From: Streptomyces sp. WMMC940
GTDB lineage: Bacteria > Actinomycetota > Actinomycetes > Streptomycetales > Streptomycetaceae
Direction of reading: 5' to 3'
NCBI RefSeq assembly: GCF_027460265.1
Contig: NZ_JAPZBC010000001.1
Location: forward strand, 4,347,501 to 4,411,500
DNA: 64,000 nucleotides
Positions within the stretch are counted from its first letter, which is position 1; each line of letters starts with the position of its first letter. Positions 123 through 61,004 of the stretch are shown one piece after another. Below the pieces are notes generated by a model that did not search any database, had not been told where the DNA came from, and saw only the letters and a list, made by a program, of their open reading frames with translations. The position numbers were made by a program, and so were the translations under genes.

Positions 123-1070
123 ATGGTTTGCGAGAGATGCGGAGGGACGCACCGGGGCGCGCTGCCGGGGATGGTGCTCGACTCCTGCACCGTCGAGTCC
201 GTGCCGGCACACCGGACGCCCGGCGAGCCGGTCCTCGAGCGAAGGATGATGGCGGCGGGGGCGGCAGCCGTCCTCTCGCTGTGTCTGCTGGCGCTCGGAG
301 TCACGATCATCGCAACCGCCGGCGGCGACGGTGACGGCGAACGCACCGACGACGCGCGACCGGTCGTGGAGGACATCGCGCTGGGCGGGATGCCCCAGAG
401 GATCGGCCCGACGTTCTTCCCGGAGGACGTGCCGGAACCGAGCGCCACGTCCGCGAAACCGAAGCCCCGGCCCACGGTGAGGAAGCCGACACCGCCCGTG
501 TCCGCACCCGCCCCCGGGGCGGAGCCGTCCGTACCGGCCGACGCGTCGGCCGGGGACGCGGCCTGGTTCAGCGAGTGGGCCGGGCCGGGCTGCCCGAACG
601 GCGTCCGTACGCAGGGCCGTTACTCGGACGGCCGTGACGGCTGGTACGAGGTCGGCTCCGGCGGCCACCGCGGCAACGGGTGCGACGGCCGGTTCATCGC
701 CGTGCCGATGTCCGGTGCACGGGACCAGGACGGCGGCAACACGGTCACCTGGAGCTGGCACCCGGGCAGCGGCTACTCGACGTGCTCGGTCGCGGTACGT
801 GTGCCGTGGAGTCACCGTGAGGAGGACGTCGCCGGCGATCCGACGCGGTACCACGTCCTCGCTGACGCCCGGGACTCCGGATCCGTGCTCGCCGCGTTCG
901 AGATCGGCCAGCGGACGATGCGCGGCGGGTTGGTCGTCGTGAACGACCTGCCCGTCCGGGAGGGCGAGTTGGCGGTGCAGCTCGTGGACCGTGGCCGGAA
1001 CTGGGGGTACGGCGGGCGCGACGGGGCGCATCACGCGGCAGCGCAGATCCGAGCCGACTGCAGGTCATGA
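123..1070 (+). CDS. Zinc-ribbon-like membrane-anchored protein, unknown function (copy 1)
   Basis: The protein is about 315 residues. It starts MVCERCGG, so a CxxC pair sits at the N-terminus, but the second pair of a zinc ribbon is reduced to a single Cys (LDSC), unlike the downstream paralogue. One hydrophobic helix lies near residues 42-62, followed by a Pro/Ala/Lys-rich linker and a C-terminal domain of about 160 residues (EWAGPGC near its start, HHAAAQ near its end). A cytoplasmic ribbon and an exported C-terminal domain are inferred. The ATG at 123 is preferred over GTG at 114 because it aligns with the paralogue's start. TGCATAGTG lies 6 nt upstream, suggesting a leaderless transcript. 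Function is not recognised. Confidence 0.75.
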   Translation: MVCERCGGTHRGALPGMVLDSCTVESVPAHRTPGEPVLERRMMAAGAAAVLSLCLLALGVTIIATAGGDGDGERTDDARPVVEDIALGGMPQRIGPTFFPEDVPEPSATSAKPKPRPTVRKPTPPVSAPAPGAEPSVPADASAGDAAWFSEWAGPGCPNGVRTQGRYSDGRDGWYEVGSGGHRGNGCDGRFIAVPMSGARDQDGGNTVTWSWHPGSGYSTCSVAVRVPWSHREEDVAGDPTRYHVLADARDSGSVLAAFEIGQRTMRGGLVVVNDLPVREGELAVQLVDRGRNWGYGGRDGAHHAAAQIRADCRS

Positions 1071-4452: not shown

Positions 4453-4732
4453 GCCCCGCGGACCCCGCAGACCGGCACGCCGCAGCGGTCGGTCGGGCCG
4501 GCACCCGCGGCTGCGGCACGTACCGCCGCCAGGAGCACCTCGGAACCGGATCGGAAGCGGTTGACGGGTACCGGCGGAAGCGGCCGGGGTGGTCTCGTGG
4601 ACGGCGATGAGGCCGGGCGCAGCGGCCCGTGGCCCGGACGGCGGGGATCCGCGAAGGGGGAGCTGGGAGATGCGGAGCAGCCCGCCGATCCGGGGCACAC
4701 GTCGTGGCCCGCGCCCGGCCTCGCCTTCGCCG

Positions 4733-6115
4733 TCAGTCCGCCGCGCGGGGGCCGAGTACGAGGTCCTGGAAGCGCTGCTCCACCGGAGCCAGGTCGGTCC
4801 GGGCCAGTTCCTGGGGCCGGACGACGAGCCGGAGCTCGGGGGTCAGGGCGGGGTGGCGGCGGCAGGCGTCGATGAACGAATCCGCGATCAGGGCGACCAA
4901 CTGGCCCCGGTCCAGCTCCGTGACACGGGCCAGCCCGGAACCGATCAGCGGGATGGCGACCGGCTTGAACAGGCCGTGAACCGCCACCGAGGCCCACAGA
5001 CTCTCCAGGCTCAGCCGCAGATCACGGTCGCTGGACCTGGCTACCAGATCGTTGCCGAGCCGCGAATAGGCGATGGCGAACACCCGGCGGCCGTCGACCG
5101 GCACCACCACGGTGGTGCCCACCGGGTAGCGTACCCGTCGGCCCAGCGGCTTGGACCGTGCGCTCTCGGTGCCCACCGCCTTCGTCTTGCGCAGCCCCGC
5201 CCGCAGCTTGTCGTCCAGCAGGCGGCGCCGCCCGCCGAACAGCCGGTCGACGAGCTGGCTCTGCACGCTCTCACGGCTGATCACGAGATCCTCGGCGGTC
5301 TCGGTGTCGAAGGTGTCGGAGAACCCGATCACCAGGTTGCAGTCCTCTTGGTCGAACAAGTCGCCGCGCAACAGCACCACATCGGCCCGCTGCCCCGGCA
5401 ACGGCACCCGGTGCCGGAGCAGCTCCGCCCCGTGCCGGGCGCGGAGCTGCGCGCGGAGTGTGTCGAGGACCCGTGCGGCCTCGGCGTCGTCGGGGTGGTC
5501 GTGGGCGATCGTTTCGGCGACCGGCAGCGCGAGTTCCGGGCGCCCCAGGTCCGTCTGCACACGCACCAGTTCACGCCGGGCCGACTCCTGCAGGGCGGTC
5601 AGGCGGCGTACGAAGGGCACCGCGAACCCCTCGCCGCTCACCTCGGCCAGCGGTCGGCCGCGCACGAGGGACAGCGCCTCGGCAAGCCGGTGTGCGGCGG
5701 TTGCGGGCGGCGCGAGCAGGGCGTTGCTGACTATCGCGGTGAACCGCGCGCTGTCCAGTTCCTCGGGCCGCAGCACCAGACGGTAGGCGGTCTCCGGGCC
5801 CTGCACGGTGACCTGCTGCTCGGTGCGCAGCATGTTCGTTCCGACCCCGTCCAGGCCGGGTGCCAAGGCCCGCCGCAGCTCCAGGACCCGTTTCTGGACC
5901 TCGTTGCGGTTGCGCTGGTCCAGATGGCGGGGCTCGTCCGCGAGCCCCCACACGTCGCGACGCAGCTGCCGCACCGGCACAGCCTCGCCCTCGGCCGCCA
6001 CCAGACGGACCAGCAGCCTTACGGTCAGCGGCGTCAGCCGGACCGGAACCCCGTCGACTTCGAGCTGAACCGGGCCCAGGATCTTCACTTGGACACGTGC
6101 TCCCGCACCGGCCAT
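4733..6115 (-). CDS. SARP-type winged-helix/BTAD regulator fused to a macro domain
   Basis: This 460-residue protein has three parts. Residues about 7-100 form an OmpR/SARP-type winged helix (VQVKILGPVQLEVDGVPVRL). Residues about 115-235 form a helical BTAD-like region (FTAIVSNALL, ARRELVRVQTDLGRPELAL). Residues about 250-455 are a macro-like domain with GDLFDQ, VIGFSDTFDT, PLGRRVRYPVGTT, YSRLGNDL, PLIGSGLAR and LRLVVRPQEL. This macro subfamily matches what I know as the ThsA/Thoeris macro domain (formerly DUF6430), which binds NAD-derived nucleotides. ATG 6115 has a G-rich ribosome site; GTG 6145 is an alternative that would overlap the upstream region. It is divergent from a membrane protein carrying the same macro domain. 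A role as a nucleotide-sensing transcription factor is inferred. Confidence 0.75.
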   Translation of the reverse strand: MAGAGARVQVKILGPVQLEVDGVPVRLTPLTVRLLVRLVAAEGEAVPVRQLRRDVWGLADEPRHLDQRNRNEVQKRVLELRRALAPGLDGVGTNMLRTEQQVTVQGPETAYRLVLRPEELDSARFTAIVSNALLAPPATAAHRLAEALSLVRGRPLAEVSGEGFAVPFVRRLTALQESARRELVRVQTDLGRPELALPVAETIAHDHPDDAEAARVLDTLRAQLRARHGAELLRHRVPLPGQRADVVLLRGDLFDQEDCNLVIGFSDTFDTETAEDLVISRESVQSQLVDRLFGGRRRLLDDKLRAGLRKTKAVGTESARSKPLGRRVRYPVGTTVVVPVDGRRVFAIAYSRLGNDLVARSSDRDLRLSLESLWASVAVHGLFKPVAIPLIGSGLARVTELDRGQLVALIADSFIDACRRHPALTPELRLVVRPQELARTDLAPVEQRFQDLVLGPRAAD

Positions 6116-6197
6116 ACCCGTCGCCCCCCCACGGTTGAACGTCACTCTGCGTCAGGCATTGGTGACCGAAAGGCTATCATCGGGCCCTGGGGTAACC

Positions 6198-7184
6198 GTG
6201 AGTTCGGGTGATTCCGGCGGTCCGGACCCGAGAGACCCGATACGATCCCCCGACTCCTCCCGGCCGCGCGCCGAGCCGTGTCCGCGACGGCGGCCGGCTC
6301 GCCCCCGCTCCCTTCTCTTCCCGCGTCTGCCGCGTGGCGCGCGGCGCGCCCGGCAGGTCTTCGTACGCGACACGATGGTGGCGTTCGGCGGGCTGTCGGC
6401 CGTGCTGCAGGTCCTGGGGCCGTTCGTGCCGCACAGCGGTTCCGCCGCCGCCGTCGGGCTGTCGGTGGGGGCGTGCCTGGGCTGGGGGTTGATGCGGGCC
6501 CGTCCTGCGGCCCGGGTGCAGCAGGTGTTCCGGCGGCCCGACATGACGGTGGTCGTTGAGGCGGGCGACTTGTTCGACCAGTCGACCCACCTCGTCGTCG
6601 GCTTCTGCGACACCTTCGACACCCTGTCGGCCGGCGGCCGAGTCATCAACGGCGACAGCCTGCAGGCGCAACTGCTGGACCGCGGATACGGCGGCGACGT
6701 GGCCCGGCTGGACGCGGAGCTGAGCGCGGCGCTCGCCTCGGCCGAGCCCGTCGCACGCGAGGAGCGGGCCGACAAGCCGCTCGGCAAGCTCGACCGCTAC
6801 CCGATCGGCACGGTCGCGGTACTGGGCACTCGACCGCGGTTGGTGTTCGGCGTGGCCTACAGCCGGATCGGCAACGACTACGTGGCCGTCTCCGGGGTGG
6901 AGGACCTGTGGCGGGGCCTCGGCGGGCTGTGGGACGGGCTGCGCGCGCACGCCCAACTGGACCGGGTGGCCATGCCCTTGGTCGGCTCCGGGCTGGCGCG
7001 GATCGGCTATCTCGACCGGGACAGCCTCCTCCGGCTGATCCTGATGTCATTCGTGGCCCGCTCCCGGGAGAGCGCGATCTGCCGTGAACTGCGCGTGGTG
7101 GTACGGCCTGAGGAACTGGAGAGCGTCGACATGCGGGAGCTGGCGGCGTTCCTGGACGCCCTGGCGTCGGACCCGGACCGGTAG
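6198..7184 (+). CDS. Two-helix membrane protein with ThsA-like macro domain
   Basis: The protein has a basic, Pro/Arg-rich N-terminus, then two membrane helices separated by a short loop (TMVAFGGLSAVLQVLGPF and AAAVGLSVGACLGWG). A cytoplasmic macro domain of about 210 residues follows (AGDLFDQ, VVGFCDTFDT, PLGKLDRYPIGT, AYSRIGNDY, PLVGSGLARIGYLDRDSLL, LRVVVRPEEL). It is strongly similar to the macro domain of the divergent regulator. TM-TM-macro is the architecture reported for ThsA effectors of type II Thoeris, which damage the membrane after binding a TIR-made signal. The start is uncertain: GTG 6198 is preferred, TTG 6135 or ATG 6375 are possible. A TATCAT box lies upstream. The gene is convergent with a TIR-like gene. 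Confidence 0.75.
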   Translation: MSSGDSGGPDPRDPIRSPDSSRPRAEPCPRRRPARPRSLLFPRLPRGARRARQVFVRDTMVAFGGLSAVLQVLGPFVPHSGSAAAVGLSVGACLGWGLMRARPAARVQQVFRRPDMTVVVEAGDLFDQSTHLVVGFCDTFDTLSAGGRVINGDSLQAQLLDRGYGGDVARLDAELSAALASAEPVAREERADKPLGKLDRYPIGTVAVLGTRPRLVFGVAYSRIGNDYVAVSGVEDLWRGLGGLWDGLRAHAQLDRVAMPLVGSGLARIGYLDRDSLLRLILMSFVARSRESAICRELRVVVRPEELESVDMRELAAFLDALASDPDR

Positions 7185-7265
7185 CGTACGGACCGAACGG
7201 CGTGGGTACATCCGTTGGCGTACGAAGGGGCGGAACTCGGCGTCCCGCCCCTCTCGCACCGTCCG

Positions 7266-7958
7266 TCAGGCCAGTCGGCGGTATGCCGCGAGATTCCTGA
7301 AGTACGAGATGTCGCGCCAGTCCGGCCGGGTGTCGTCGAGATCGCACTCGGCGCCCTTGAGCCGTTCGACGATCTTCGAGACGGCGGCCTCGGAGCCGTC
7401 GAAGTGGACCACGTTGCGGCCCGCGAGGTCCGCGGCGGGCCGCACCTGGCCGACCTGCACGATGATCGTCCGCTCCGGATAGGCCATCAGCGCCATGCCG
7501 AGTTCGATCAGCACGTTCTGGCGGGGCTGGCCGGTCAACCGGTCCTCGTAGGGGGGCTCGTTGAAGCCCTGCAGGTGAGGATGGAGCATGGCGACGTCGT
7601 CCGGGGTGAGCAGCACGAGCGCCGCCTGCGCCTGCGACAGTGCCTTCTCGATGACCTCGCCGAGGAACGGAGCGGTCCCCCCGGTGGCCCGAACCAGCCG
7701 CTCCCACTCCAGCGGGCGCAGGTCGAGCCGGCGCAGCAGCCCGAACATCGCCGTGCGGACCTCCTCGTCACGGCCGTGCACGACGAAGACGCTGCGGCTG
7801 CGGCCGTAGTCCGCGCGCGCCCGGGCCGCGCGCTCAGCCTCCTGCTCGACGGACGGCTGTTGCTGCTGCGGAGTGTTGTGGACGTTGTAGCCGAAGTTGC
7901 TGTTCTGGCCACCGAATACGTTCTGGCTGTTGTCACCGAAGGTGTGGCCCTGGTTCAT
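7266..7958 (-). CDS. TIR-like (CAP12/Pycsar-type) protein with N-terminal Asn/Gln-rich motif
   Basis: The protein is 230 residues. Residues 8-25 are GDNSQNVFGGQNSNFGYN, followed by a Gln/Pro linker and a charged helix. From about residue 55 comes a TIR-like domain: SVFVVHGRDEEVR, LEWERLVRATGG, FLGEVIEKAL, AALVLLTPDDVA and RQNVLIELGMAL. The Glu of NVLIELG is the expected NAD-cleaving residue of this family (PF10137, linked to CBASS and Pycsar effectors). AGGGA precedes ATG 7958. An upstream ATG at 7979 overlaps the previous stop as ATGA, so translation is probably coupled. It is the last gene of a three-gene operon. Self-assembly through the motif is inferred. Confidence 0.8.
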   Translation of the reverse strand: MNQGHTFGDNSQNVFGGQNSNFGYNVHNTPQQQQPSVEQEAERAARARADYGRSRSVFVVHGRDEEVRTAMFGLLRRLDLRPLEWERLVRATGGTAPFLGEVIEKALSQAQAALVLLTPDDVAMLHPHLQGFNEPPYEDRLTGQPRQNVLIELGMALMAYPERTIIVQVGQVRPAADLAGRNVVHFDGSEAAVSKIVERLKGAECDLDDTRPDWRDISYFRNLAAYRRLA

Positions 7959-8059
7959 GGTCGTTTCCCTGTTCGTCATGATGATCGGCCGTCCTGCGGC
8001 TGGTAGTTGTAGCCGAAGTTGCTGTTCTGGCCGCCGAATACGTTCTGGCTGTTGTCGCC
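7884..8059. repeat. Near-identical 54-bp coding repeat in two adjacent genes
   Basis: Positions 7884-7937 and 8006-8059 match at 52 of 54 bases. The first copy encodes residues 8-25 of the TIR-like protein; the second encodes the last part of the preceding membrane protein. Both translate to GDNSQNVFGGQNSNFGYN plus flanks. Near identity at the DNA level suggests a recent duplication or gene conversion as well as protein-level selection. Confidence 0.9.
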
Positions 8060-9592
8060 CAGCAGGATGTTGGTCTGCGCGCGGTCGTGCTCGGCGAGGT
8101 CCACGTCGTGCTCGTCGAGGAACGCGCGGATGTTCTGGAGCAGACGGCGCTCGATGATCTCCATGTACTTGGTCGCGTCGGAGTGCTGGAAGAAGTGGTG
8201 GTAGTGCTCGCTGGTGGCCAGTTCCCTGACGCTGGCCACCGCGCCGCAGTTGAGCCACGGGTTGACGTAGCGGCCGAGCCCGAACTCGCTGGTGTCCGTC
8301 ATCTGGTCCGCCTGCAGCACCGCGGCCATCGCCCTCCTGGCCCTCCTGGCCCGCCAGGGCCGGATCCACGGGACCGCCCACGTCGGCAGGAACCGCTCCG
8401 GGACCAGCCACAGCGGCCAGAGCCACAGCACGGTGGACCAGCGCACCGTGGTCGTGAACATGTCCCACGCCAGCCGCACTGCCAGACGCCCGTCGATGGT
8501 GCGGGGCAACTGGTCCACGAGGTGGAAGTCCTTCACGAGCGGGCCGAGCACATAGGTGTAGAACTCGGTGTGCAGTGTGTTGCCCCGGATGTCGAACCCG
8601 ACGAAGATCGAGGTCACCAGTTCCTCGTCCCACGACCCGACGCGCACGCACAGGTATTCGCGGGCCGCGTCGTAGTCCTCGCGCCAGTGGACGCCGGGCA
8701 GGTCGTCCGTGCCGGGCAGTTCGGACCAGTCGGCACCGGTGGACCGGTCGTTGGTGCGGATCGCGGTGGTGTAGCGGCGCTGCTCGACGGTCAGCCCTTC
8801 GATCCGCTCGTCGGGGTGGGCCTCGTCGCGGAGATCGGCGGCCATCCGGGCGGCGACCTGGCCGGTGATGTCGCGCACGGTGAACGGGATGACCTGCCTG
8901 CGCTCGACGGTGTCGAGGTCGGGCGGCAGGCCGTTCTCGCCCTTGCGTGCCATGATCCGGGTCTTCGGGGCGCCCAGCAGCAACTGGGCGTTGGACCACT
9001 CGCGCATGGGCAGGCCCGCGCCGACGAAGGGCCGGTAGCCGCCGTAGAAGACCAGTCCGCTGCGGCTGGCCTGCTCTTGGTCGATCTTGCGGGCAAGCTC
9101 GGAGGTCAGCTTGTCGTGCGACGGGCAGGCGCCGCCGAAGCCGCCGTCCGGCCCGCTCTCCCGGAGCCGGGTCATCAGGATGTGCAGGGTGACGATCCGG
9201 CGCAGATAGGCCGCCGCCCACGGCACCCAGAGCAGCACGACGACACCGAGGGGCCCGCTGAGTACCCCGCTGCTCATCAGCAGCAGGACCGCGGCCGCCG
9301 TGCCGGCCGCGGCCGCCCACTGGGTGCGGTGCAGCCGGCGTGCGGCGAGGGCGTGTGCGAGCACCGACACGGCGTCGTAGCCGAAGGAGGGCGCGACGAC
9401 CCGGAAACGGCTGTCCAGCAGTTCCCGGATGACGGCACCCCGGTAACCGGGATCGAGGTAGGTGCCCGCTGACAGCAGCCGGGTGGCTCTGGTGCGCAGG
9501 TACTCGCGGTGTGCCGGCGGCCTCTGCGGCGGCGGGCCGGGTGGACGGGGGGAAAGTTCTTCTGTCGCCATGGTGGTTCGCGCTCCGCTCAT
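7976..9592 (-). CDS. Large membrane protein ending in the shared Asn/Gln-rich motif
   Basis: The protein is about 538 residues. After a Pro-rich N-terminus come two adjacent membrane helices near residues 95-140 (GTAAAVLLLMSSGVLSG, LGVVVLLWVPWAAAYL). A cytoplasmic region of about 230 residues follows (ELARKIDQEQ, FVGAGLPMREWS), then a third hydrophobic segment near residue 400 (TVLWLWPLWLVPERFLPTW). A helical tail with HYHHFFQHSDATKYMEIIERRLLQNIRAFLDEH leads to GDNSQNVFGGQNSNFGYN just before the stop. I do not recognise the family. ATG 9592 has GGAGAGG upstream; ATG 9571 is an alternative. It lies 34 bp after the previous gene and overlaps the next gene's upstream start by 4 nt. Signalling to the TIR protein through the shared tag is inferred. 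Confidence 0.75.
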   Translation of the reverse strand: MSGARTTMATEELSPRPPGPPPQRPPAHREYLRTRATRLLSAGTYLDPGYRGAVIRELLDSRFRVVAPSFGYDAVSVLAHALAARRLHRTQWAAAAGTAAAVLLLMSSGVLSGPLGVVVLLWVPWAAAYLRRIVTLHILMTRLRESGPDGGFGGACPSHDKLTSELARKIDQEQASRSGLVFYGGYRPFVGAGLPMREWSNAQLLLGAPKTRIMARKGENGLPPDLDTVERRQVIPFTVRDITGQVAARMAADLRDEAHPDERIEGLTVEQRRYTTAIRTNDRSTGADWSELPGTDDLPGVHWREDYDAAREYLCVRVGSWDEELVTSIFVGFDIRGNTLHTEFYTYVLGPLVKDFHLVDQLPRTIDGRLAVRLAWDMFTTTVRWSTVLWLWPLWLVPERFLPTWAVPWIRPWRARRARRAMAAVLQADQMTDTSEFGLGRYVNPWLNCGAVASVRELATSEHYHHFFQHSDATKYMEIIERRLLQNIRAFLDEHDVDLAEHDRAQTNILLGDNSQNVFGGQNSNFGYNYQPQDGRSS

Positions 9593-9626
9593 GTGGGCGC
9601 ACCTCTCCGGCACGCCCGGTGGGGTG

Positions 9627-10370
9627 TCAGTCGGTCCGGGTGGCCGTGCCGCTGGTGATGACACCGTCACGGACGGTGTAGGTGGCGTCGTACGAGTGCG
9701 TCGTGCCGTCGACCTGGAGGGCCTCGATGGTCAGCCGCACCTTGGTGCCTTCCACGGACACGATGCCGATGGCGTCCCGCTTGGTGGTGGCGTAGCCCGA
9801 GACGAAGCGGTCGTAGCTGGAGTCGAGGTTCTTGCCGCCGAGAGCCCAGGCGGTCTGGTAGTCGCGGGCGTTGATCGCCTCGAAGTAGGCGGTGACGACA
9901 TCGCTCGGTCCGCCGCTCGCGCTCGCGGCCGGGGTGCCGGTGGTGGTGTCCGTCGGGTAGGCGAACCCGCCGTCGCCGTACCCGTCGGTCGCGGTCGCCT
10001 CGGGGGTGCTGTACCGGTCCGGTGTACTGGTGCCGTCGTACGGCCATGCGGGTGCCGTCGTCGACGGCGTGTGGCTCGGCCGGCCGGCCGGGCTTCCGCC
10101 GTCCGTGCCGAAGGTGTCCGAACCGAACAAGCCCGACCCGGACGATCCGGACGGCCCGTAGGGCTCGGACGAGGCGGAGTCGTCGGCTGCGCCGCCCAGC
10201 AGGACCACCGTCATGGCGAGCAGCAGGGGCGTGGTGATGACCACGAGCCCCCAGGTGCGGGCGGGACCGCTCGGGGGTATCAGCCCCGGGGCGCGATAGG
10301 AGGGCGGCGCGCGGTGGGTGGACGGTGTGTCGGGGCGCCCGGCGTACGGTGTCAGCCCTGGGTCGGTCAT
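9627..10370 (-). CDS. Membrane-anchored exported protein, unknown function
   Basis: The 247-residue protein has a Pro-rich cytoplasmic N-terminus and one membrane helix (LVVITTPLLLAMTVVLLGG) near residues 45-65. A Ser/Thr/Pro/Gly-rich linker of about 90 residues follows, then a C-terminal domain of about 100 residues beginning DVVTAYFEAINARDYQTAWALGG. That opening resembles NTF2-like/DUF4878-type exported domains. ATG 10370 has TGGAGAA upstream. It is the first gene of the minus-strand operon with the motif-bearing membrane protein and the TIR-like protein, so it may be the cell-surface part of that system; this is inferred from position only. Confidence 0.65.
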   Translation of the reverse strand: MTDPGLTPYAGRPDTPSTHRAPPSYRAPGLIPPSGPARTWGLVVITTPLLLAMTVVLLGGAADDSASSEPYGPSGSSGSGLFGSDTFGTDGGSPAGRPSHTPSTTAPAWPYDGTSTPDRYSTPEATATDGYGDGGFAYPTDTTTGTPAASASGGPSDVVTAYFEAINARDYQTAWALGGKNLDSSYDRFVSGYATTKRDAIGIVSVEGTKVRLTIEALQVDGTTHSYDATYTVRDGVITSGTATRTD

Positions 10371-10796
10371 GGGGTTCTCCACAGGTCACTGCAGTGCAGC
10401 GCGCCCGCCCCGAATGGCCCATGGCGGTCCGTACGGTACGTGTGTACGCGATGGGTCCGCCGTGAGGCGACGATGGACAGCGGTGCGCGGAATGGCGGTT
10501 GACGCCTCCGATGCGACCAGCGCCCCCGCTTCCGTGCCCAGAACCGACCTGCTTCCGATCCGCTTCCGGCCCGCTCCGGGCCCTTGGGACGGCCGGTCCG
10601 TACCTCCCGTTGTGCCGCGCAGGCCGCCGACCGCGAGGGGCAGCACCTCCGGCCGGACCCGCTCGATCTGGCGCGGTTGTGGCCCGAGCCCGGGAGCGCG
10701 ACGCGTTCCCCCGTGCAGCCCGGCGAGTAGTCGAACATGTTCAATACTGCTGGCAGGATGACAAGCGCGTGATCGACGCCCGGTCGAACCGCGGTC
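10371..10796. other. Intergenic, no gene recognised
   Basis: The 426 bp upstream of the three-gene minus-strand operon presumably holds its promoter. Open frames here lack family motifs and ribosome sites. I see no convincing RNA, repeat or operator. Confidence 0.5.
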
Positions 10797-11424: not shown

Positions 11425-12027
11425 GTGATCAGCAATGAGGGGGTGTGCCTGGGTGTCGAGGCCGCACGTCGCCTGGCAGAGACAGGTCTCCACGAGTTCG
11501 AACCAGGGTTGACAGACGCCGAGTTTGCGCGCATTGAGCGCGAGTATGGCTTCGAGTTCGCGGACGACCACCGGGCGTTCCTTGCGGCAGGCCTCCCCGG
11601 TCAACGTCCCTCCCGAGGAGGGACAGACCTGGTCCAGGCCGTGGCCGGAGTGGCGCGGTGGTGATCGGGACAGCTTGCGGCGACAGCTCGCCTGGCCGGT
11701 CGAGGGCCTTCTCCTCGACGTTGAGCACAACGGGATCTGGTGCGACGACTGGGGCGAGCGGCCGGCCGAAGGGACTGCGGCACTGAATTCGGCGTGGCGT
11801 CATCTGGCGGAGGTACGGTCCTGGTGCCCGTGTATGGCCACCGATACCTGCCCGCTGGCCAGGGAAGCTTCGGACATCCGGTGCTCTCGATGTGGCAGAC
11901 CGACATCATTTATTACGGGCTGGACCTGGTCGACTACATGCACCAGGAGTTCGCCGAGGCGCGGGGCGAGGTCGACGAGAGCTGGAACCCGCTGGCAACG
12001 GTCCCCTTCTGGCGGGACCTCCTCTGA
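11425..12027 (+). pseudogene. SMI1/KNR4 (SUKH) family protein, disrupted by two frameshifts
   Basis: The frame starting at GTG 11425 gives [20 protein letters not shown] and [13 protein letters not shown], typical of SMI1/KNR4 proteins. Near 11596 an extra C in CTCCCCGG shifts the reading, and the expected [19 protein letters not shown] continues in the next frame. Near 11816 a missing C (GTACGG for GTACCGG) shifts back, giving PVYGHRYLPAG, HPVLSMWQTDIIYYGLDL and WNPLATVPFWRDLL to the stop. The two changes compensate, but frame 1 hits a stop at 11664 between them, so the gene is broken unless one is a sequencing error. SUKH proteins are often immunity proteins of polymorphic toxins. Its 3' end overlaps the convergent kinase gene. 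Confidence 0.75.
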
Positions 12028-13001
12028 CTCCTCTGGACCATGGGGACGGCGGCCTTCGAGAGTTGGCAGAGGAATCTACGCGGGTTTGTCGCCCGGCCTG
12101 GTTCCGTTGTGGGCGGTGCGGGCCGGGCAGGAGCTACGTTCTCGGTGTCGTCGCGGCCGGACGGGTTCGCGGTGCGCATGCCGGAAGCCGCCGTGGGCGG
12201 CAGGCCGCGGAGGCGGTCGCAGACCTCGCTGGCGGAGACTGGACGGTCTTCGGGCTCTTTGGCGAGCAGTTCCATGACCAGGTCGTCCACCGAGGCGGGC
12301 ACCCCGGACCGGACCCGGCCCGGGGGCACGGGGGCCTTCGCCAGATGTGCGCTCATCATCGACGCCGGGCTGGTGGCGTGGAACGGGACCTGCCCGGTGA
12401 GGAGTTCGTGGAGGACGCAGCCGAGGGAGTACAGGTCGGAGCGGACGTCGCCGGGGTGCCCATCGAACCGCTCCGGCGGCATGTACGGGAACGTCCCCAT
12501 CACCCTGCTCGACGGCAGTGACTCAATGAACCGGGCGATGCCGAAATCGAGAATCTTGACCCGTCCGTCTGGGGTGAGCATCAGGTTCGCCGGCTTGAGA
12601 TCCCGGTGGACCACGTCCATCTCGTGCGCCCGAGCCAGTGCAGCCGCCGCCTGCGCTACCCAGTCGACAGCGGCCGCCACCGGTGGCGGCCCGTCCTCTT
12701 TCAGCACCGTGGCCAGGTCACGCCCCACGAGAAACTCCATGACCAGGAACAGCGAGCCGTCCTCCGTGTCCTGGCCGAAGTCGTGCACGGTCACCACGCC
12801 GGGATGATTCAGCGCCCCGGCTGTGCGGGCTTCGCGCTGGAACAACGCGGCGCCGGGGGTGTCGCGTCGGTCGTGCGGGAGCAGTTTGATCGCCACCTGC
12901 CGCCCGATCACCCGGTCCCGGCCCTCCCACACCTCGCCCATGCCGCCGCGGCCGACAAACCGCACGAGCTCGTATCGCCCGGCCAGAACCCGCGTCATCA
13001 T
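11934..13001 (-). CDS. Ser/Thr protein kinase with aberrant C-terminus
   Basis: The kinase domain is complete (residues about 10-265): GRGGMGEVW P-loop, VAIKLL lysine, HRDLKPANL catalytic loop, DFGIAR, MGTFPYMPPER and SDLYSLG. After it comes only a short Pro/Arg/Ser-rich tail with no membrane helix or sensor domain. The last 30 codons are read antisense across the end of the SMI1 pseudogene, so the original 3' part was probably lost by a junction and the frame runs on to a chance stop. ATG 13001 follows GGGGG. It is likely a soluble kinase, if expressed. Confidence 0.75.
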   Translation of the reverse strand: MMTRVLAGRYELVRFVGRGGMGEVWEGRDRVIGRQVAIKLLPHDRRDTPGAALFQREARTAGALNHPGVVTVHDFGQDTEDGSLFLVMEFLVGRDLATVLKEDGPPPVAAAVDWVAQAAAALARAHEMDVVHRDLKPANLMLTPDGRVKILDFGIARFIESLPSSRVMGTFPYMPPERFDGHPGDVRSDLYSLGCVLHELLTGQVPFHATSPASMMSAHLAKAPVPPGRVRSGVPASVDDLVMELLAKEPEDRPVSASEVCDRLRGLPPTAASGMRTANPSGRDDTENVAPARPAPPTTEPGRATNPRRFLCQLSKAAVPMVQRSQRRSRQKGTVASGFQLSSTSPRASANSWCM

Positions 13002-13162
13002 CGCACCCCCGAACACGACCGCCACACCTTCGGCACGAAGCCCGCCCGCCCTTTCCCATTCCTGAAAGCACCGCTGCCAAGCTGCCCAGTCCTACGGCAC
13101 GGAGCGTCGGATCCTTGAGCCCGGGTAGTCGTGGGCCCAGGAACACGTCCCTTGCTGTTGCG

Positions 13163-14530
13163 TCAGCCGACCTCGATCTCCAGGACGACGGCGGCTCGGA
13201 AGCCCGTAATGGTGACCTTCACGTCGAGGATGGCCGGTTCTCCGCGCGGCTCAACCGCGATACTGCACGTGCGGGAGCAACCAGAGGAGTGGGTGTCCTC
13301 CACTTCGCCCACGCTCGTGACGTAGGGCGAGTCCCTGAGCCACTCGCGGAGGGCATCGCGGTCACCGTCGGTCAGACACCAGTTGCATACCTCTCCACTC
13401 GTCTTCGTGTAGCGCGCGAGTACCTTTCCGCCCCCGGCCTGCTCCTCGGACTCGATGGCGAAGCCGTCCGGGTTCCCCAATTCCTTGAGCACACGGTGGC
13501 TGAGCTCGTGCGTCGCACGCTCCTGGTAATCCTGGTACTTCACGTACCCGGTGACCGACCCGCCCACAAGGAGGGCCGCCAGCATCGCGCCCGGAAACAC
13601 CGGGAAGCGTCTATGCCGCCGTCGTCTGCCTGCTGGGGGCGGCGGCTGATCCGGCATGGGGGGAAGAACCAGGGTGGGACGGCCCACGTCGAGGTCGGCA
13701 GGCGGCACGGCGGCGGCCACCTGCGCGAGGACCTGCTGGAGCTGGTCGGCACTCATCCGCTCGGCGGGGTCTTTGCGGAGAAGTCCGGTGAGTGCGGACT
13801 CCAGCGGGCCTGCGAGGGCCGTGGGTGCGGGGTCCTCCGTGGCGACGGCTACAAGGACCGCTCCGGGGTTGCCTTCCGGGAACGGAGGATGCCCTTCCAC
13901 CGCGGTGTAGAGCGTCGCGCCCAGCGACCACAGGTCCGAGGCGGCGGTGGCCGTGAGGCCACGCACCTGCTCGGGCGCCATGAACGCCGGGGTCCCTATG
14001 ATCACGCCAGACCCGGTGAGCGTTGCGTCACCGTCCACGGCCGCGATGCCGAAGTCAGTCAGGACGACGCGATCGCCCTCCAGGAGGATGTTCGCGGGCT
14101 TGATGTCGCGGTGCGTAATACCCGCCCGGTGCGCGGCCATCAGCGCCGACAGGACCTGCACACCTATGAGGGCGACCTGCGCGGGCGGCAGGGCGCCCCG
14201 CCGGGCGAGCAGGTCGGCCAGGGATCCGCCCTGCACCAACTCCATGACGATCCACGGGTGTCCGGTCTCAGGATCGACGACGCGATCATGAACCGTGACT
14301 ATGCCGTGATGCTTCAGGCTGGCCGCCGCCCGCGCCTCGCGCTCCAGGCGGGCGATCCAGTTCTCCCGCTCGGCGGCGGTCAGGTGATCCGGCAGGCGCA
14401 GTTCCTTGATCGCCACGTCCCGCCCCAACTGCTCATCCCGGGCTCGCCAGACGACACCCATGCCGCCCTGCCCCAATTTCCCCGTCAGCCCGTATCGGCC
14501 GAGCAGAACCCTCCCAAGATCCCCATCCAC
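13163..14530 (-). CDS. Transmembrane Ser/Thr protein kinase
   Basis: The protein is 455 residues. The N-terminal kinase domain (about 10-270) has GQGGMGVVW, VAIKEL, HRDIKPANILL, DFGIAAVDG, GTPAFMAPEQVRG and SDLWSLGATLY. A Pro-rich juxtamembrane stretch and basic cluster precede one helix (FPGAMLAALLVGGSVTGYV, about 325-345). The extracytoplasmic part of about 110 residues contains CNWC and SSGCSRTC Cys pairs, so it is probably disulphide-bonded. The start is GTG 14530 with a weak ribosome site. It shares orientation with two other kinase genes nearby. Substrate and ligand are unknown. Confidence 0.85.
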   Translation of the reverse strand: MDGDLGRVLLGRYGLTGKLGQGGMGVVWRARDEQLGRDVAIKELRLPDHLTAAERENWIARLEREARAAASLKHHGIVTVHDRVVDPETGHPWIVMELVQGGSLADLLARRGALPPAQVALIGVQVLSALMAAHRAGITHRDIKPANILLEGDRVVLTDFGIAAVDGDATLTGSGVIIGTPAFMAPEQVRGLTATAASDLWSLGATLYTAVEGHPPFPEGNPGAVLVAVATEDPAPTALAGPLESALTGLLRKDPAERMSADQLQQVLAQVAAAVPPADLDVGRPTLVLPPMPDQPPPPAGRRRRHRRFPVFPGAMLAALLVGGSVTGYVKYQDYQERATHELSHRVLKELGNPDGFAIESEEQAGGGKVLARYTKTSGEVCNWCLTDGDRDALREWLRDSPYVTSVGEVEDTHSSGCSRTCSIAVEPRGEPAILDVKVTITGFRAAVVLEIEVG

Positions 14531-14571
14531 AGCAGGAAATCTAGTCCACGCTCGTGACGCTCAGCGCGTTC

Positions 14572-14589
14572 TTCTAGAAATTTCTTCTA
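14572..14589 (+). promoter_or_regulatory. Operator-like inverted repeat upstream of tetR (14637)
   Basis: TTCTAGAAATTTCTTCTA contains TAGAA-N5-TTCTA and a TTCTAGAA core. It lies 47 bp before the TetR start. The same arrangement, in the same orientation relative to the gene, lies before the SDR gene at 18243-18260. Confidence 0.6.
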
Positions 14590-14636
14590 CTTCAGGTGCA
14601 TTAGGCTGTCTGCCATGACGTCAACGAGATCGAGCC

Positions 14637-15239
14637 ATGTCTCCTAAGCAGCAGCGCGGCGAGGCCACCGTCGACCGTCTCTTGACGGCCGCCCTCGAGG
14701 TGTACGCCTCATCGGGCCAGCAGGGGTTCACGGTGAACGCAGTCACCGAGGCCAGCGGCGTCAGCCTCGGCAGTCTCTACCACCATTTCGGCAGTTTCGA
14801 CGGCCTCGCAGCAGGCCTTTACACCAGGTGCATGCAGGAGCTGTTCGACGAGTTGACCGCTGCCGTGACCCGTACCCGCACCGCCCGCACCGGTGTCCGC
14901 GCGCTCGTAAGGGCCTACCTGCGCTTCACCGAGGAGCGGCCCGACGCCGCGCTCTTCATCCACGCCTCCGCGTACTCCGGCTATCTCGTGGCTCACGCCG
15001 ACCGCATCCGCGCCGCCAAGGCCGTCATGCTGGGAGGCATCGTGGACTGGATGCGGCCGCGGATCGAAGCCGGCGAGATCCTGCCCATCCCCGAGCCCCT
15101 GGTCGAGGCCCTGGTTATCGGACCGGTTGCCGAGACTGCGCGTCGCTGGCTGGCCAGCACGTACGACATCGACCTCGCCCAAGCGGCGCGGATCCTTCCC
15201 GACCGGATCTGGCGGTCCCTGCGACCGGACTGTGACTAG
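14637..15239 (+). CDS. TetR/AcrR family transcriptional regulator
   Basis: The protein is 200 residues. The N-terminal DNA-binding part shows RLLTAALEVYASSGQQGFTV, NAVTEASGVSLGSLYHHFGS (the recognition helix region) and FDGLAAGLY. The C-terminal ligand domain is helical (RALVRAYLRFTEERPDAALF). The operator-like sequence at 14572 suggests autoregulation, and its match before the SDR gene at 17396-18220 suggests that gene as a target. The start at ATG 14637 has no strong ribosome site. Confidence 0.85.
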   Translation: MSPKQQRGEATVDRLLTAALEVYASSGQQGFTVNAVTEASGVSLGSLYHHFGSFDGLAAGLYTRCMQELFDELTAAVTRTRTARTGVRALVRAYLRFTEERPDAALFIHASAYSGYLVAHADRIRAAKAVMLGGIVDWMRPRIEAGEILPIPEPLVEALVIGPVAETARRWLASTYDIDLAQAARILPDRIWRSLRPDCD

Positions 15240-15361
15240 GTGTGCTGTCCGGGGACGGGGACGCCGCTGGCCCGCAGGGTGCGGGCGGATGCCTGACCTT
15301 CGAGGGACCGCCTGGCACAGTCGAGCCCTGCACTGAACGGCCATTTTGCCCTCTCGGACGC

Positions 15362-17074
15362 TCATTCACCCCAGGCTTCGGCATCGCTCTTACCCTGCCC
15401 ATATCGAGTGAGGGCTTCTGTCACCGCGGCCCGCTGCTGGTCCGTCATCGGCCCGAGGACGCAGATGGGCACCATCCCGTTACGGCCGCGGGTTTTAGTC
15501 CCGTAGGGCCACCCTGGCGGGCGGTGCGGAGTCGAGGGCTTCTCACCCTGCGCGAACTTGACGTGGAGTCCGGCTCTGGCGCCGTGCAGAACCCGATCGG
15601 GCAACTCCTCGTGGTATCCGAAGACTTCTTCGACGGCGAACGTCCGCACCTGACTCCATCGGTATTGATGCCTGTCGAGTTGGGTGGTGGTTCTGATGCC
15701 CCGTGGCCCGATCTCCAGAGACCACGCGGACCTGCGGTTTGGCTCGAGAGATTTCACGATGGCAGCCAGGAGCAACATGGACAGGCAAAATACCCCGATG
15801 CAGCTGAAAACTATCGCTGTGACCGTCCATGCGGGCGGGTGTCCGGGTTCGAACTCAAACGGCTCGTCCGGCGCCAGTGCGAGCGAGATAAGGAAACCGG
15901 CCAGCGCCACCGCCGACGTGATCGTGAACCCAACGACCACGCCACGTCCTTGCCCAGTCATGTAGGCAGACAGTGGCTCTTTTCCCGTCCATGAGATGGT
16001 GACCGGGCCGTTGGCGCGGGACGGTGTTCCGTCCAGCGGGAGCGTACGCGGTGGAGGCGGCTGCATCGCCGTGGTCTGCTGGTCCGACGCCTCGCGATGC
16101 TGAGCGTCAGGGATACGGCTTGCGGCAACGTCGTGCGCAGCTCGCATGGCAGTGGCGAGCCGGGCGAGGAGGGCAGCGCGGGACTCCCGATGTGAGGGGA
16201 CCCTGATCGGCCCGGCGGTTGTGAGGATGTGCGTTCGGTCGAGTTGTTGCAGGGCCTGGGAGAGGTTGGCGGCGTTCGGGTACCGCTGGGTGGGGTCCTT
16301 GTGGAGCAGGGTCAGCACGAGGTCGTCCCAGGCGGATGGGATGTCCGTGGACACCGAGCTGGGGGTGGGGGGCTCCTGGGTGAGGTGTGCCGAGAGGTAG
16401 CCCACGGTGTCGGGGGCCTGGAAGGGCAGTTGGCCTGTGATCAGCTCGAAGAGCAGGCAGCCGAGCGCGTACAGGTCGCTGCTTGGTTCTGGGAAGCCGC
16501 GTGCTTGTTCGGGTGCCATGTACGGGGGTGTGCCCACGATGAGGCCGGTCTGGGTGAGTCGGTCGGCGGTCGCGTAGGGGTCGGCCGCCCGCGCGACGCC
16601 GAAATCGAGGACCTTCACGTTGCCGGAAGGCGTGATGAGGATGTTGGAGGGCTTGATGTCCCGGTGCATGATTCCGGCTTCGTGCGCGTCAGCAAGTGCG
16701 TCACATATCTGTGCGCCCCATCGGGCCGCGTCCGGCAGGGTGACGGCGCCTCGGCGAAGCATCGTGTCCAGGCCCTCGCCTCGGATCAGCTCCATCACCA
16801 GGAACGGGGCCCGGTTGTCCCCGGTGTCGGTCTCGCCGAGGTCGTGGATGGTGACGATGTGGGGGTGCTGCAGTCGGGCGGTGATCCGTGCCTCGCGCAG
16901 GAACCTGGTGCGTGCCTCGCCGCCGCGGCTTCCGCCACCGGCGAGCAGGGAGATCACCTTGACCGCGACGGGCCGGCCCAGCGTCTTGTCCTGTGCCTCC
17001 CACACCTGCCCCATACCGCCCTCGCCGAGCTGCCGCACCAACCGGTAACGGCCTCCGAGGAGCTGGTCTCGCAC
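15362..17074 (-). CDS. Transmembrane Ser/Thr protein kinase with two helices
   Basis: The protein is about 570 residues. GTG 17074 follows an excellent GGGAGG site and gives MRDQLLGGRYRLVRQLGEGG. The kinase domain covers about 12-280 (HRDIKPSNILI, DFGVARAAD, GTPPYMAPEQARG, SDLYALGCLLFEL). A linker leads to two hydrophobic helices (GVVVGFTITSAVALAGFLI and TVTAIVFSCIGVFCLSMLLL), then a C-terminal domain of about 130 residues beginning LEPNRRSAWSLEIGPRGI, which would return to the cytoplasm. That tail resembles PH-like regions but is not recognised. It sits between the TetR gene and its suspected SDR target. Confidence 0.85.
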   Translation of the reverse strand: MRDQLLGGRYRLVRQLGEGGMGQVWEAQDKTLGRPVAVKVISLLAGGGSRGGEARTRFLREARITARLQHPHIVTIHDLGETDTGDNRAPFLVMELIRGEGLDTMLRRGAVTLPDAARWGAQICDALADAHEAGIMHRDIKPSNILITPSGNVKVLDFGVARAADPYATADRLTQTGLIVGTPPYMAPEQARGFPEPSSDLYALGCLLFELITGQLPFQAPDTVGYLSAHLTQEPPTPSSVSTDIPSAWDDLVLTLLHKDPTQRYPNAANLSQALQQLDRTHILTTAGPIRVPSHRESRAALLARLATAMRAAHDVAASRIPDAQHREASDQQTTAMQPPPPRTLPLDGTPSRANGPVTISWTGKEPLSAYMTGQGRGVVVGFTITSAVALAGFLISLALAPDEPFEFEPGHPPAWTVTAIVFSCIGVFCLSMLLLAAIVKSLEPNRRSAWSLEIGPRGIRTTTQLDRHQYRWSQVRTFAVEEVFGYHEELPDRVLHGARAGLHVKFAQGEKPSTPHRPPGWPYGTKTRGRNGMVPICVLGPMTDQQRAAVTEALTRYGQGKSDAEAWGE

Positions 17075-17395
17075 CGCCGTGCCTCCCGTGATTCGATCAT
17101 TCCTGCCCTTCCGCCTGCGAGCCGGCGCCCTGGAATCATGACGCGACCGCGAAGGCAGCACGCCCGAAACGCCGGAACTTGCCACCAGCAGAGATGCTCG
17201 CCAAGAAGGCCACTCCGGTCCGGATCGGCCTTCCATCCCAGGTGTGCCGCCGACGGGCGATCCGGCTCAGTGAGCGTCGCTCACCTCGGCGTCGAGAACC
17301 CGGCGCAGATCGACGCATGCCCCGGTCGCACAGGACGGCAATGCGTCACCCGCTGCGGAGAACGTCCCGCCCAACCGGAACCTGGTGGCTGCTGT
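17075..17395. other. Intergenic, no gene recognised
   Basis: The 321 bp lie between the SDR stop and the kinase start, both on the minus strand. Open frames are shadow-like. They should hold the kinase promoter; no clear operator or hairpin was seen. Confidence 0.5.
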
Positions 17396-59545: not shown

Positions 59546-59619
59546 GGGCCTGTGGCGCAGACTGGTAGCGCACCTCGTTCGCATCGAGGGGGTCAGGGGT
59601 TCAAATCCCCTCAGGTCCA
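59546..59619 (+). tRNA. tRNA-Ala (anticodon CGC)
   Basis: The 74-nt cloverleaf has acceptor GGGCCTG/CAGGTCC with one G-U pair, anticodon stem CCTCG/CGAGG around loop TTCGCAT (anticodon CGC, Ala codon GCG) and T-arm AGGGG-TTCAAAT-CCCCT. CCA is not encoded. The adjacent decayed integrase suggests its 3' end is an integration site. Confidence 0.9.
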
Positions 59620-59630
59620 CAACAGGTCAG

Positions 59631-59660
59631 AGCCCCTGTCGGAGAGATCCAGCAGGGGCT
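59631..59660 (+). terminator. Hairpin after tRNA-Ala
   Basis: AGCCCCTG (59631-59638) pairs with CAGGGGCT (59653-59660), followed by TTGT. It lies between the tRNA and the convergent integrase pseudogene. Confidence 0.6.
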
Positions 59661-59692
59661 TTGTCGTGCCGTACAGCAGCGAAGTACAGCAA

Positions 59693-60798: not shown

Positions 60799-61004
60799 GC
60801 TGTCAATCCTTCCTGGGCCTCACGGGCCCGACGTTCGACGTACTCGTCGACCCAGCGAGGAAGGATGCGGCGGCTACGGCCCTCCTTCAGGGAACGGATC
60901 TCGCCGGTGAGGACGAGCATTTTGGTCTTGGACAGGCCGAAGCCGAGCATTTCGGCGACCTCGGCGGTGGTGTACCACTTGCCCTCGATGACGGTCGTGG
61001 TCAT
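60795..61004 (-). CDS. xis: Excisionase-like DNA-binding protein
   Basis: The protein is 69 residues. It has a winged helix/MerR-like motif: WYTTAEVAEMLGFGLSKTKM, LTGEIRSLKEGRSRRILPRW and VDEYVERRAREAQ. GGAGA precedes ATG 61004. It overlaps the integrase start and the stop of the preceding fragment by 4 nt each, the rep-xis-int order of actinomycete integrative elements. It seems intact although the integrase is not. Confidence 0.85.
   Translation of the reverse strand: MTTTVIEGKWYTTAEVAEMLGFGLSKTKMLVLTGEIRSLKEGRSRRILPRWVDEYVERRAREAQEGLTA

What the first reader, a model, noticed from the sequence alone, without database searches (positions are those of the whole stretch)
4733..10370. TIR, two macro-domain proteins and a motif-tagged membrane protein form a possible undescribed immune locus
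Within 5.7 kb lie a TIR-like protein (7266-7958) of the CAP12/Pycsar class, a TM-TM-macro protein (6198-7184) with type II Thoeris ThsA architecture, a SARP-type regulator carrying the same macro domain (4733-6115), a large membrane protein (7976-9592) and a small exported protein (9627-10370). Thoeris pairs a TIR signal maker with a macro sensor. Here the TIR is of another class and the sensor appears both as membrane effector and as transcription factor. The gene order (divergent regulator/effector facing an operon) does not match a Thoeris or CBASS layout that I know.
Basis: partly seen in the sequence, partly recalled or inferred. Interest (0 to 1): 0.9.

Follow-up and report, generated by a model that had tools for sequence, protein, structure and literature searches.

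The report
Motif-paired membrane receptor and TIR cassette
Streptomyces carries a conserved five-gene cassette in which a membrane protein and a signal-making TIR enzyme wear the same short prion-like tag, and the enzyme's product is probably read both by a membrane-attacking protein and by a gene switch whose likely binding sites bracket the cassette.

Summary
In 199 Streptomyces genomes, close relatives of the membrane protein (MEM) occur in 12 and close SARP-macro relatives in the same 12. Of 21 distinct loci, all have SMALL-MEM-TIR plus SARP-macro; 19 also have TM-macro.

(1) The tag on the MEM C-terminus and TIR N-terminus matches in 21 of 21 loci (and 42 of 42 partly overlapping database pairs), yet is replaced in concert: it differs between classes whose protein bodies stay homologous. 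Nine of nine distant MEM relatives examined share other tags with a different neighbour. (2) Heptamer direct repeats with 4-bp spacers (CGGAAGC), the published form of SARP operators, bracket the cassette; the exact pattern occurs in 13 of 199 genomes, always within 0.8 kb of SARP-macro or its remnant. (3) SARP-macro accompanies the same TIR class in three loci lacking the cassette, there fused to CATRA.

Best reading: membrane receptor, templated TIR assembly, ADP-ribose-type signal, membrane effector plus self-amplifying transcription factor. Amyloid formation, ligand, DNA binding and phage defence are untested.

The parts
4541..4581 (+). operator-like element (CGGAACC-N4-CGGAAGC-N16-CGGAAGC), 151 bp beyond the SARP-macro stop, pointing into the cassette
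   Evidence: present beyond SARP-macro with <=2 mismatches in 21 of 21 loci
4733..6115 (-). SARP-type regulator (wHTH + BTAD) with C-terminal ThsA-type macro domain
6139..6200 (.). conserved intergenic block between divergent SARP-macro and TM-macro (CGTCACTCTGCGTCAG ... in relatives AGTGAC), probable promoter region
6198..7184 (+). TM-macro protein with ThsA-like architecture
7266..7979 (-). TIR protein of the CAP12/PCTIR class (ATG 7979 overlapping the MEM stop, or ATG 7958); residue E152 (numbered from 7958) aligned with a glutamate of the SfSTING TIR
7879..7937 (-). tag in the TIR N-terminus (GDNSQNVFGGQNSNFGYN)
7976..9592 (-). MEM: large membrane protein, hydrophobic stretch at residues 93-128, conserved further part, N/G-rich C-terminal tail
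8001..8059 (-). tag in the MEM C-terminal tail, same 18-residue sequence as in TIR
9627..10370 (-). SMALL: single-TM protein with Thr/Ser/Gly-rich linker and a conserved C-terminal domain, probably outside the cell (inferred)
10528..10568 (-). operator-like element CGGAAGC-N4-CGGAAGC-N16-CGGAAGC, 157 bp upstream of the SMALL start, pointing into the cassette

Best explanation
The cassette is a self-amplifying TIR signalling system. SMALL (domain probably outside) and MEM (membrane plus probably cytoplasmic domain) form the receptor side. On activation the C-terminal tails of MEM cluster and, by homotypic amyloid-like templating, nucleate the matching motif at the TIR N-terminus, so that TIR assembles and becomes active. 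TIR turns NAD+ into an ADP-ribose-type signal. Two ThsA-type macro domains read it. TM-macro oligomerises in the membrane and damages it. SARP-macro activates transcription at the CGGAAGC repeats upstream of SMALL and so raises more receptor and TIR; the copy beyond the SARP stop may feed TM-macro or an antisense transcript over SARP. Most likely purpose: defence against phage or another envelope-borne attack. Shown here by sequence: the unit, the matched tags and their concerted change, the TIR, macro and SARP domains, the repeats and their close link to SARP-macro. Inferred: every physical step (topology, templating, chemistry, ligand, DNA binding, membrane damage) and the immune role.
For: Unit: 10 of 10 loci from one scan hold all five genes in one order; strong MEM and close SARP-macro relatives are in the same 12 of 199 genomes (in G118 the SARP gene lies in two frames). 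MEM and TIR overlap by 4 bases in 15 of 20 loci, by my own gene caller, and in the window. Coupling: tail versus own TIR N-terminus beats all 500 shuffles in 21 of 21 loci and none of 20,000 permutations reaches the observed sum; 42 of 42 contig-matched database pairs beat all 200 shuffles; between classes A, B and C the tags score at or a little above shuffle level though MEM bodies are 53-56% and TIR bodies 68-76% identical; 9 of 9 distant MEM relatives examined share another tag with a different downstream protein. Signal: E152 invariant in 48 of 48 TIRs and aligned with a glutamate of SfSTING in a weak match, E=0.016; the model matches TIR-STING and SfSTING. Readout: both macros keep D83, D100, S175 and G218 of EcThsA where read; SARP-macro next to CATRA-TIR in 3 of 3 further loci. 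Operator: <=2 mismatches beyond SARP in 21 of 21 loci, exactly 32 bp beyond the stop in 8 of 8 class B/C loci; two or three boxes upstream of SMALL in 20 of 20 loci holding that region; exact pattern in 13 of 199 genomes, reversed control 0; published SARP sites are heptameric direct repeats, often with 4-bp spacers.
Against: The two tag copies are closer in codons than independent draws would give (67 of 377 identical residues use different codons, 110 expected), so DNA-level copying explains part of the match. A MEM tail's own TIR is the best match in only 9 of 21 loci, and a TIR's own MEM in 12 of 21, because near relatives carry near-identical tags. No amyloid predictor was run and the tags were not compared with BASS profiles. 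In the macro pocket N114 is Q wherever read, T220 is A or S, H259 is R and K262 is D/E where read, so the ligand may not be plain ADPR. Two of 21 cassettes (class C) lack TM-macro. The SARP-side repeat has no gene in the expected promoter position, and in class B/C the SMALL side has two boxes, not three in the same spacing. A general test for 11-bp periodicity upstream of SMALL did not stand out from shuffles in 16 of 18 loci scored. MEM has no confident fold match. No test of phage defence.
Confidence: 0.55

Rival explanations
1. The tag is a co-recruitment motif, not an amyloid: both copies bind a third partner or pair as a non-amyloid short beta interaction, so that MEM and TIR sit in one complex from the start.
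For: The match is equally expected; no fibre data exist; AlphaFold gives both tags low confidence.
Against: N/G/Q/S/Y-rich composition (61-64% in the two termini against 19% in the MEM body), and wholesale replacement of the tag sequence in both partners together, which fits self-templating better than a fixed third partner.
Confidence: 0.25
2. The matched tags are a by-product of DNA repeat homogenisation (gene conversion between neighbouring repeats) without a function.
For: Codons at identical residues are more alike than independent draws (18% different, 29% expected); the copies start 122 nt apart in the window.
Against: The copies stay in frame at the MEM C-terminus and TIR N-terminus in 21 of 21 loci; in the window the DNA repeat is confined to the motif; some loci keep the match with many synonymous differences (L009 8 of 24, L044 9 of 24). 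Distant MEM relatives do the same with another partner in 9 of 9 loci examined.
Confidence: 0.07
3. A developmental or envelope-stress signalling system rather than immunity: SARP-macro mainly switches genes in response to NAD-derived signals, and TM-macro is a membrane modulator.
For: SARP regulators are known for secondary metabolism; class C has no TM-macro; two SARP-macro/CATRA-TIR loci lie beside what looks like a radical-SAM gene group with a small possible precursor peptide.
Against: PF10137 TIR, ThsA-type macro and CATRA are families named for or described in conflict systems; patchy distribution (12 of 199) and variable surroundings; decayed remnant in G092.
Confidence: 0.25
4. The inward-facing repeats are ends of a mobile cassette (terminal inverted repeats), not operators.
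For: They bracket the cassette in inverted orientation in 12 of 12 class A loci where both ends are held.
Against: In the three CATRA loci the repeat was found in one place, just upstream of SARP-macro; heptamer plus 4-bp spacer is the published SARP site form; the cassette holds five genes in a fixed order and none is a transposase. No empty-site comparison was made.
Confidence: 0.1

Closest known systems
Type II (macro) Thoeris
   Same: TIR protein next to a TM-macro ThsA-like protein; same macro family with some shared pocket residues; proposed logic TIR signal to macro reader.
   Different: TIR is PF10137, not the TIR_2 class found beside the TM-macro in L099; extra receptor pair with matched tags; second macro in a transcription factor; operator-like repeats; two of 21 cassettes have no TM-macro.
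NLR-associated bacterial amyloid signalosomes (BASS motifs with BELL, CHAT or TIR)
   Same: Two neighbouring genes share a short motif at the C-terminus of one product and the N-terminus of the other; many mutually unlike motif families; TIR among known partners (review PMC7889193, passages).
   Different: The partner is a membrane protein with no Pfam match instead of an NLR; no BELL match; the TIR is accompanied by macro readers.
CAP12/PCTIR TIR effectors of CBASS and Pycsar; PADLOC candidate PDC-S35
   Same: TIR family (PF10137 7e-27; PDC-S35 7.9e-20).
   Different: No other Pfam domain in the protein and no cyclase among the five cassette genes; the N-terminus is a tag.
CATRA conflict systems
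   Same: A PF10137 TIR beside SARP-macro in three loci is fused to CATRA-N/CATRA-C; the small neighbour tested in L094 is CATASP.
   Different: In the window the TIR is not fused; the tag seems to take the place of the covalent link to the sensor.
SARP regulators (EmbR, AfsR, ActII-ORF4 type)
   Same: wHTH plus BTAD; heptameric direct repeats with 4-bp spacers nearby.
   Different: C-terminal ThsA macro domain as probable ligand sensor; sits in a TIR cassette rather than an antibiotic cluster.

Membership tests
Type II Thoeris | TM-macro ThsA effector | tested here: met
   PF20016 2e-57 and PADLOC ThsA 5.3e-77 over nearly the whole model
Type II Thoeris | ThsB-type TIR gene next to ThsA | tested here: not met
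   TIR is PF10137; its PADLOC matches are PDC-S35, Effector and PycTIR models, no ThsB; a TIR_2 protein sits next to the TM-macro of L099
Type II Thoeris | ADPR pocket residues of EcThsA macro | tested here: inconclusive
   D83, D100, S175, G218 kept where read; S217 S or A; N114 to Q, T220 to A/S, H259 to R, K262 to D/E where read; 18 TM-macros and 20 SARP-macros, window not counted, up to 9 of 20 unread at a position
Type II Thoeris | anti-phage abortive infection | not testable with these tools
   needs phage assays
CAP12/PCTIR TIR | PF10137 above curated cut-off, conserved Glu | tested here: met
   94.2 bits against 24.7; E152 invariant in 48 of 48
NLR amyloid signalosome (BASS) | adjacent genes sharing a motif at opposite termini | tested here: met
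   21 of 21 loci
NLR amyloid signalosome (BASS) | receptor is an NLR | tested here: not met
   MEM has no Pfam match at E<=1
NLR amyloid signalosome (BASS) | motif matches BASS1-10 profiles | not tested
NLR amyloid signalosome (BASS) | motif forms amyloid and cross-seeds | not testable with these tools
   needs peptides and fibre assays
SARP regulators | wHTH plus BTAD | tested here: met
   BTAD 2e-7 above cut-off; Trans_reg_C 5e-4 below cut-off; EmbR chain E=0.0063 over residues 10-218
SARP regulators | heptameric direct repeats with 4-bp spacers near target promoters | tested here: met
   20 of 20 loci upstream of SMALL; 13 of 199 genomes, all with SARP-macro or remnant within 0.8 kb; binding itself untested
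CATRA systems | CATRA domains in the cassette | tested here: not met
   none in the window's five proteins; found in L093-L095

The most novel reading that the evidence does not exclude
A bacterial innate-immune relay in which a non-NLR membrane receptor passes its state to a TIR enzyme by prion-like templating of a matched tag, and the TIR product is sensed by a macro-domain transcription factor that re-induces the whole cassette: a nucleotide second messenger made by a TIR that acts on transcription, with receptor-effector pairs insulated by swapping tags. The same receptor superfamily, with other tags and a DUF5955-type partner, would be a widespread actinobacterial amyloid-signalling toolbox independent of NLRs.
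Probability: 0.45. Interest if true: 0.93.

Novelty: new variant of a known kind. Interest (0 to 1): 0.86.

Why it matters
A 2021 review of amyloid signalling asks, as an open question, whether signalling amyloids exist in bacterial pathways that do not depend on NLRs (PMC7889193, passage seen). This cassette, with its second family of distant membrane proteins paired to other partners, is a concrete candidate with naturally swapped, locus-specific tags, so specificity can be tested by exchange. A TIR system whose signal is read by a transcription factor did not appear in the listings of my searches (one search found 0 papers holding SARP, macro domain, TIR and Streptomyces together). The operator-like repeats give a direct in vitro assay for the unknown ligand.
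Full report
Observation. Pfam gives ThsA_Macro for SARP-macro (3.2e-49) and TM-macro (2e-57), BTAD for the regulator and CAP12-PCTIR_TIR for the TIR (7e-27); MEM and SMALL match no family at E<=1. PADLOC scores TM-macro as ThsA (5.3e-77) and the TIR as the candidate PDC-S35 (7.9e-20). TIR probably starts at the ATG at 7979, which overlaps the MEM stop (ATGA); by my own simple gene caller 15 of 20 related loci show the same 4-base overlap.

One unit. A scan with MEM gave 10 loci; all 10 carry SMALL, MEM, TIR, TM-macro and SARP-macro in the same order, and none has the window's MarC, FGE or first kinase gene within the fetched flanks. In 199 Streptomyces genomes, the MEM homologue P0040 gave 121 genomes with any match, but only 12 strong ones (bits 266 and above). 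SARP-macro relatives of 376 bits or more are in exactly those 12 (in G118 the gene lies in two overlapping frames); three more at 45-46% identity lie elsewhere, G092 has an N-terminal piece, and seven genomes gave macro-only matches. The 12 all have SMALL, MEM and TIR; 10 of 12 have TM-macro. L041 and L042 (class C) have none in 14 kb; there SARP-macro follows TIR on the same strand. With the 10 loci and one overlap (L005 and G014/L051 are the same contig) this makes 21 distinct loci. Flanking genes vary, though groups of related species share a site. The search with TM-macro itself failed, so TM-macro outside the cassette was seen only among the SARP query's macro matches: of seven such loci fetched, L099 and L101 have a TM-macro-like gene; next to that of L099 Pfam finds TIR_2 proteins, L101 looks alike by eye.

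The tag. MEM ends and TIR begins with GDNSQNVFGGQNSNFGYN. The back-translated core occurs twice in the whole genome, in these genes. Across the 21 loci the tail-to-own-TIR local score averages 95.9 against 47.2 between loci, and none of 20,000 permutations reaches the observed sum. Each locus beats all 500 shuffles of its own TIR N-terminus. The loci fall into class A (13), B (6, NNFVNGNNNTTNSGTQN type) and C (2, NSTNNFGGNQSVGNTNTTQTFGNNS type). Between classes the tags score 30-42 on average; shuffle means are 21-36; TIR bodies are 68-76% and MEM bodies 53-56% identical. These partly overlap the 21, and adjacency was not checked for them. Against over-reading: own partner is top-ranked in only 9 of 21 (MEM to TIR) and 12 of 21 (TIR to MEM), because close relatives share tags; and codons of the two copies are more alike than chance (67 of 377 identical residues differ in codon, 110 expected), so DNA copying contributes.

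A wider receptor family. 109 of the 199 genomes have only weak MEM matches. Of these I fetched nine regions, from among the highest-scoring. In all nine the next gene on the same strand is a different small protein (114-142 aa) whose N-terminus shares a locus-specific motif with the MEM tail, for example GNMTVGNNNNVTQ with GNVTIGDHNKVTQ (scores 66-83, largest shuffle 37-52). For the two partners scanned, DUF5955 is matched at 1.6e-6, above the cut-off (L052), and at 0.0079, below it (L055). This separate pairing is the best evidence that a matched tag is how this membrane family speaks to its partners.

TIR and macros. E152 is invariant in 48 TIRs. The A3 profile aligns it with the Glu of KPRDNVVFEFG in SfSTING (CD-NTase-associated protein 12), E=0.016, a weak match; that this is the known catalytic residue is recalled. 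The TIR model (pLDDT 73, pTM 0.68; the first 30 residues below 50) matches TIR-STING (2.7e-4) and SfSTING (6.6e-4), then TIR-APAZ, SARM1 and MyD88 filaments. By the phmmer alignment to 8v6q and the residues in PMC11204291 (section 7 read in full; passages), both macros keep D83, D100, S175 and G218 where read; N114 is Q wherever read, T220 is A/S, H259 is R and K262 is D/E where read (18 TM-macros, 20 SARP-macros, window not counted; several positions unread in some). At the S217 position TM-macro and SARP-macro of a locus agree in 16 of 18, partly a class effect. [quoted passage not shown] That type II Thoeris uses a histidine-ADPR adduct is recalled, not checked.

TIR and SARP-macro as the core. 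The three SARP-macro relatives outside the cassette (G121, G162, G178) all stand beside a PF10137 TIR fused to CATRA-N and CATRA-C; the small neighbour tested in L094 is CATASP. CATRA is called a caspase-dependent ternary conflict system in PMC8195603 (passage). So the TIR is joined to a sensor either covalently (CATRA) or by a tag (MEM), while SARP-macro stays.

Operator. Alignment of 11 class A regions upstream of SMALL showed nearly invariant CGGAAGC repeats. The element CGGAAGC-N4-CGGAAGC-N16-CGGAAGC lies upstream of SMALL and again beyond the SARP-macro stop, both pointing inward: SARP side in 21 of 21 loci with <=2 mismatches, 129-768 bp beyond the stop in class A and exactly 32 bp in the 8 class B/C loci; SMALL side with three boxes and <=1 mismatch in 12 of 12 class A loci that hold the region (L049 ends in SMALL), and an exact two-box form in 8 of 8 class B/C loci. 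The exact pattern occurs in 13 of 199 genomes, reversed control 0: 11 of the 12 cassette genomes (G125's copies have mismatches), G162, and G092, which keeps only a SARP fragment. In L093-L095 it lies just upstream of SARP-macro with <=1 mismatch. SARP sites are described as heptameric direct repeats with 4-bp or, in the other paper, 4-15-nt spacers (passages in PMC7040171, and PMC10972967). I conclude that this is very probably the SARP-macro operator; what the SARP-side copy does is open.

Mechanism and confidence by step (my estimates): one functional unit 0.98; MEM-TIR coupling by the tag 0.8, by amyloid in particular 0.55; TIR makes an NAD-derived signal 0.65; both macros read it 0.7; SARP-macro acts at the repeats 0.85; immune purpose 0.6.

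Prior art. The listings (titles, starts of abstracts; capped lists in several) of searches showed no description of such a cassette. The review PMC7889193 (passages) says that bacterial amyloid motifs pair NLRs with BELL, less often CHAT or TIR, and asks whether NLR-independent cases exist. PMC8086366 and PMC12261475 (passages) describe the BASS models; PMC7159879 (passages) gave nothing on this arrangement. Dyrka 2020, the source of BASS, is not held, so a match to one of its motif families or to its TIR cases cannot be excluded.

Noticed in passing
L052-L060: Distant MEM relatives (550-767 aa) are followed by a 114-142 aa protein (DUF5955-like in the two scanned, one of them below cut-off) with a locus-specific motif matching the MEM tail, 9 of 9 examined; the role of these pairs is unknown.
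   Followed up: partly
L096 (G092) 1295-1345 and 6085-6647: Decayed cassette: a SARP N-terminal fragment with its element, and an array of CGGAAGC repeats like the class C SMALL promoter, now separated by other genes (glycerol-uptake-like by eye); tblastn found no significant SMALL, MEM or TIR.
   Followed up: partly
L041-L048: In the eight class B/C loci the element lies exactly 32 bp beyond the SARP-macro stop, against 129-768 bp in class A.
   Followed up: no
L093 2096-5856 and L095 1839-5893: Divergent from SARP-macro/CATRA-TIR lies a similar gene group (radical SAM by Pfam in L093, by eye in L095) with a 65-66 aa possible precursor peptide ending in a GSRGSC- or ASRGSC-containing tail.
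   Followed up: no
L097 1030-2751: A 573-aa protein fuses effector-associated domain EAD1 (3.6e-12) to a ThsA_Macro domain (2.1e-56).
   Followed up: no
G118 (L042) 4864-6320: The SARP-macro gene lies in two overlapping frames (frameshift or sequencing error) while its neighbours look whole.
   Followed up: no
window 171-1070 and 1306-2106: Two tandem, similar-looking membrane or exported proteins with Cys-containing N-termini, by eye.
   Followed up: no
window 11934-17236: Three Ser/Thr kinase-like genes next to the cassette; the first has no match in the 10 loci.
   Followed up: partly
window 59546-61004: tRNA-Ala (cgc) followed by short ORFs resembling an integrase N-terminus and an excisionase-like helix-turn-helix (by eye): possible remnant of an integrated element.
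   Followed up: no
window 6139-6200: Conserved block between SARP-macro and TM-macro with GTCAC/GTGAC half-sites, distinct from the CGGAAGC repeats.
   Followed up: partly
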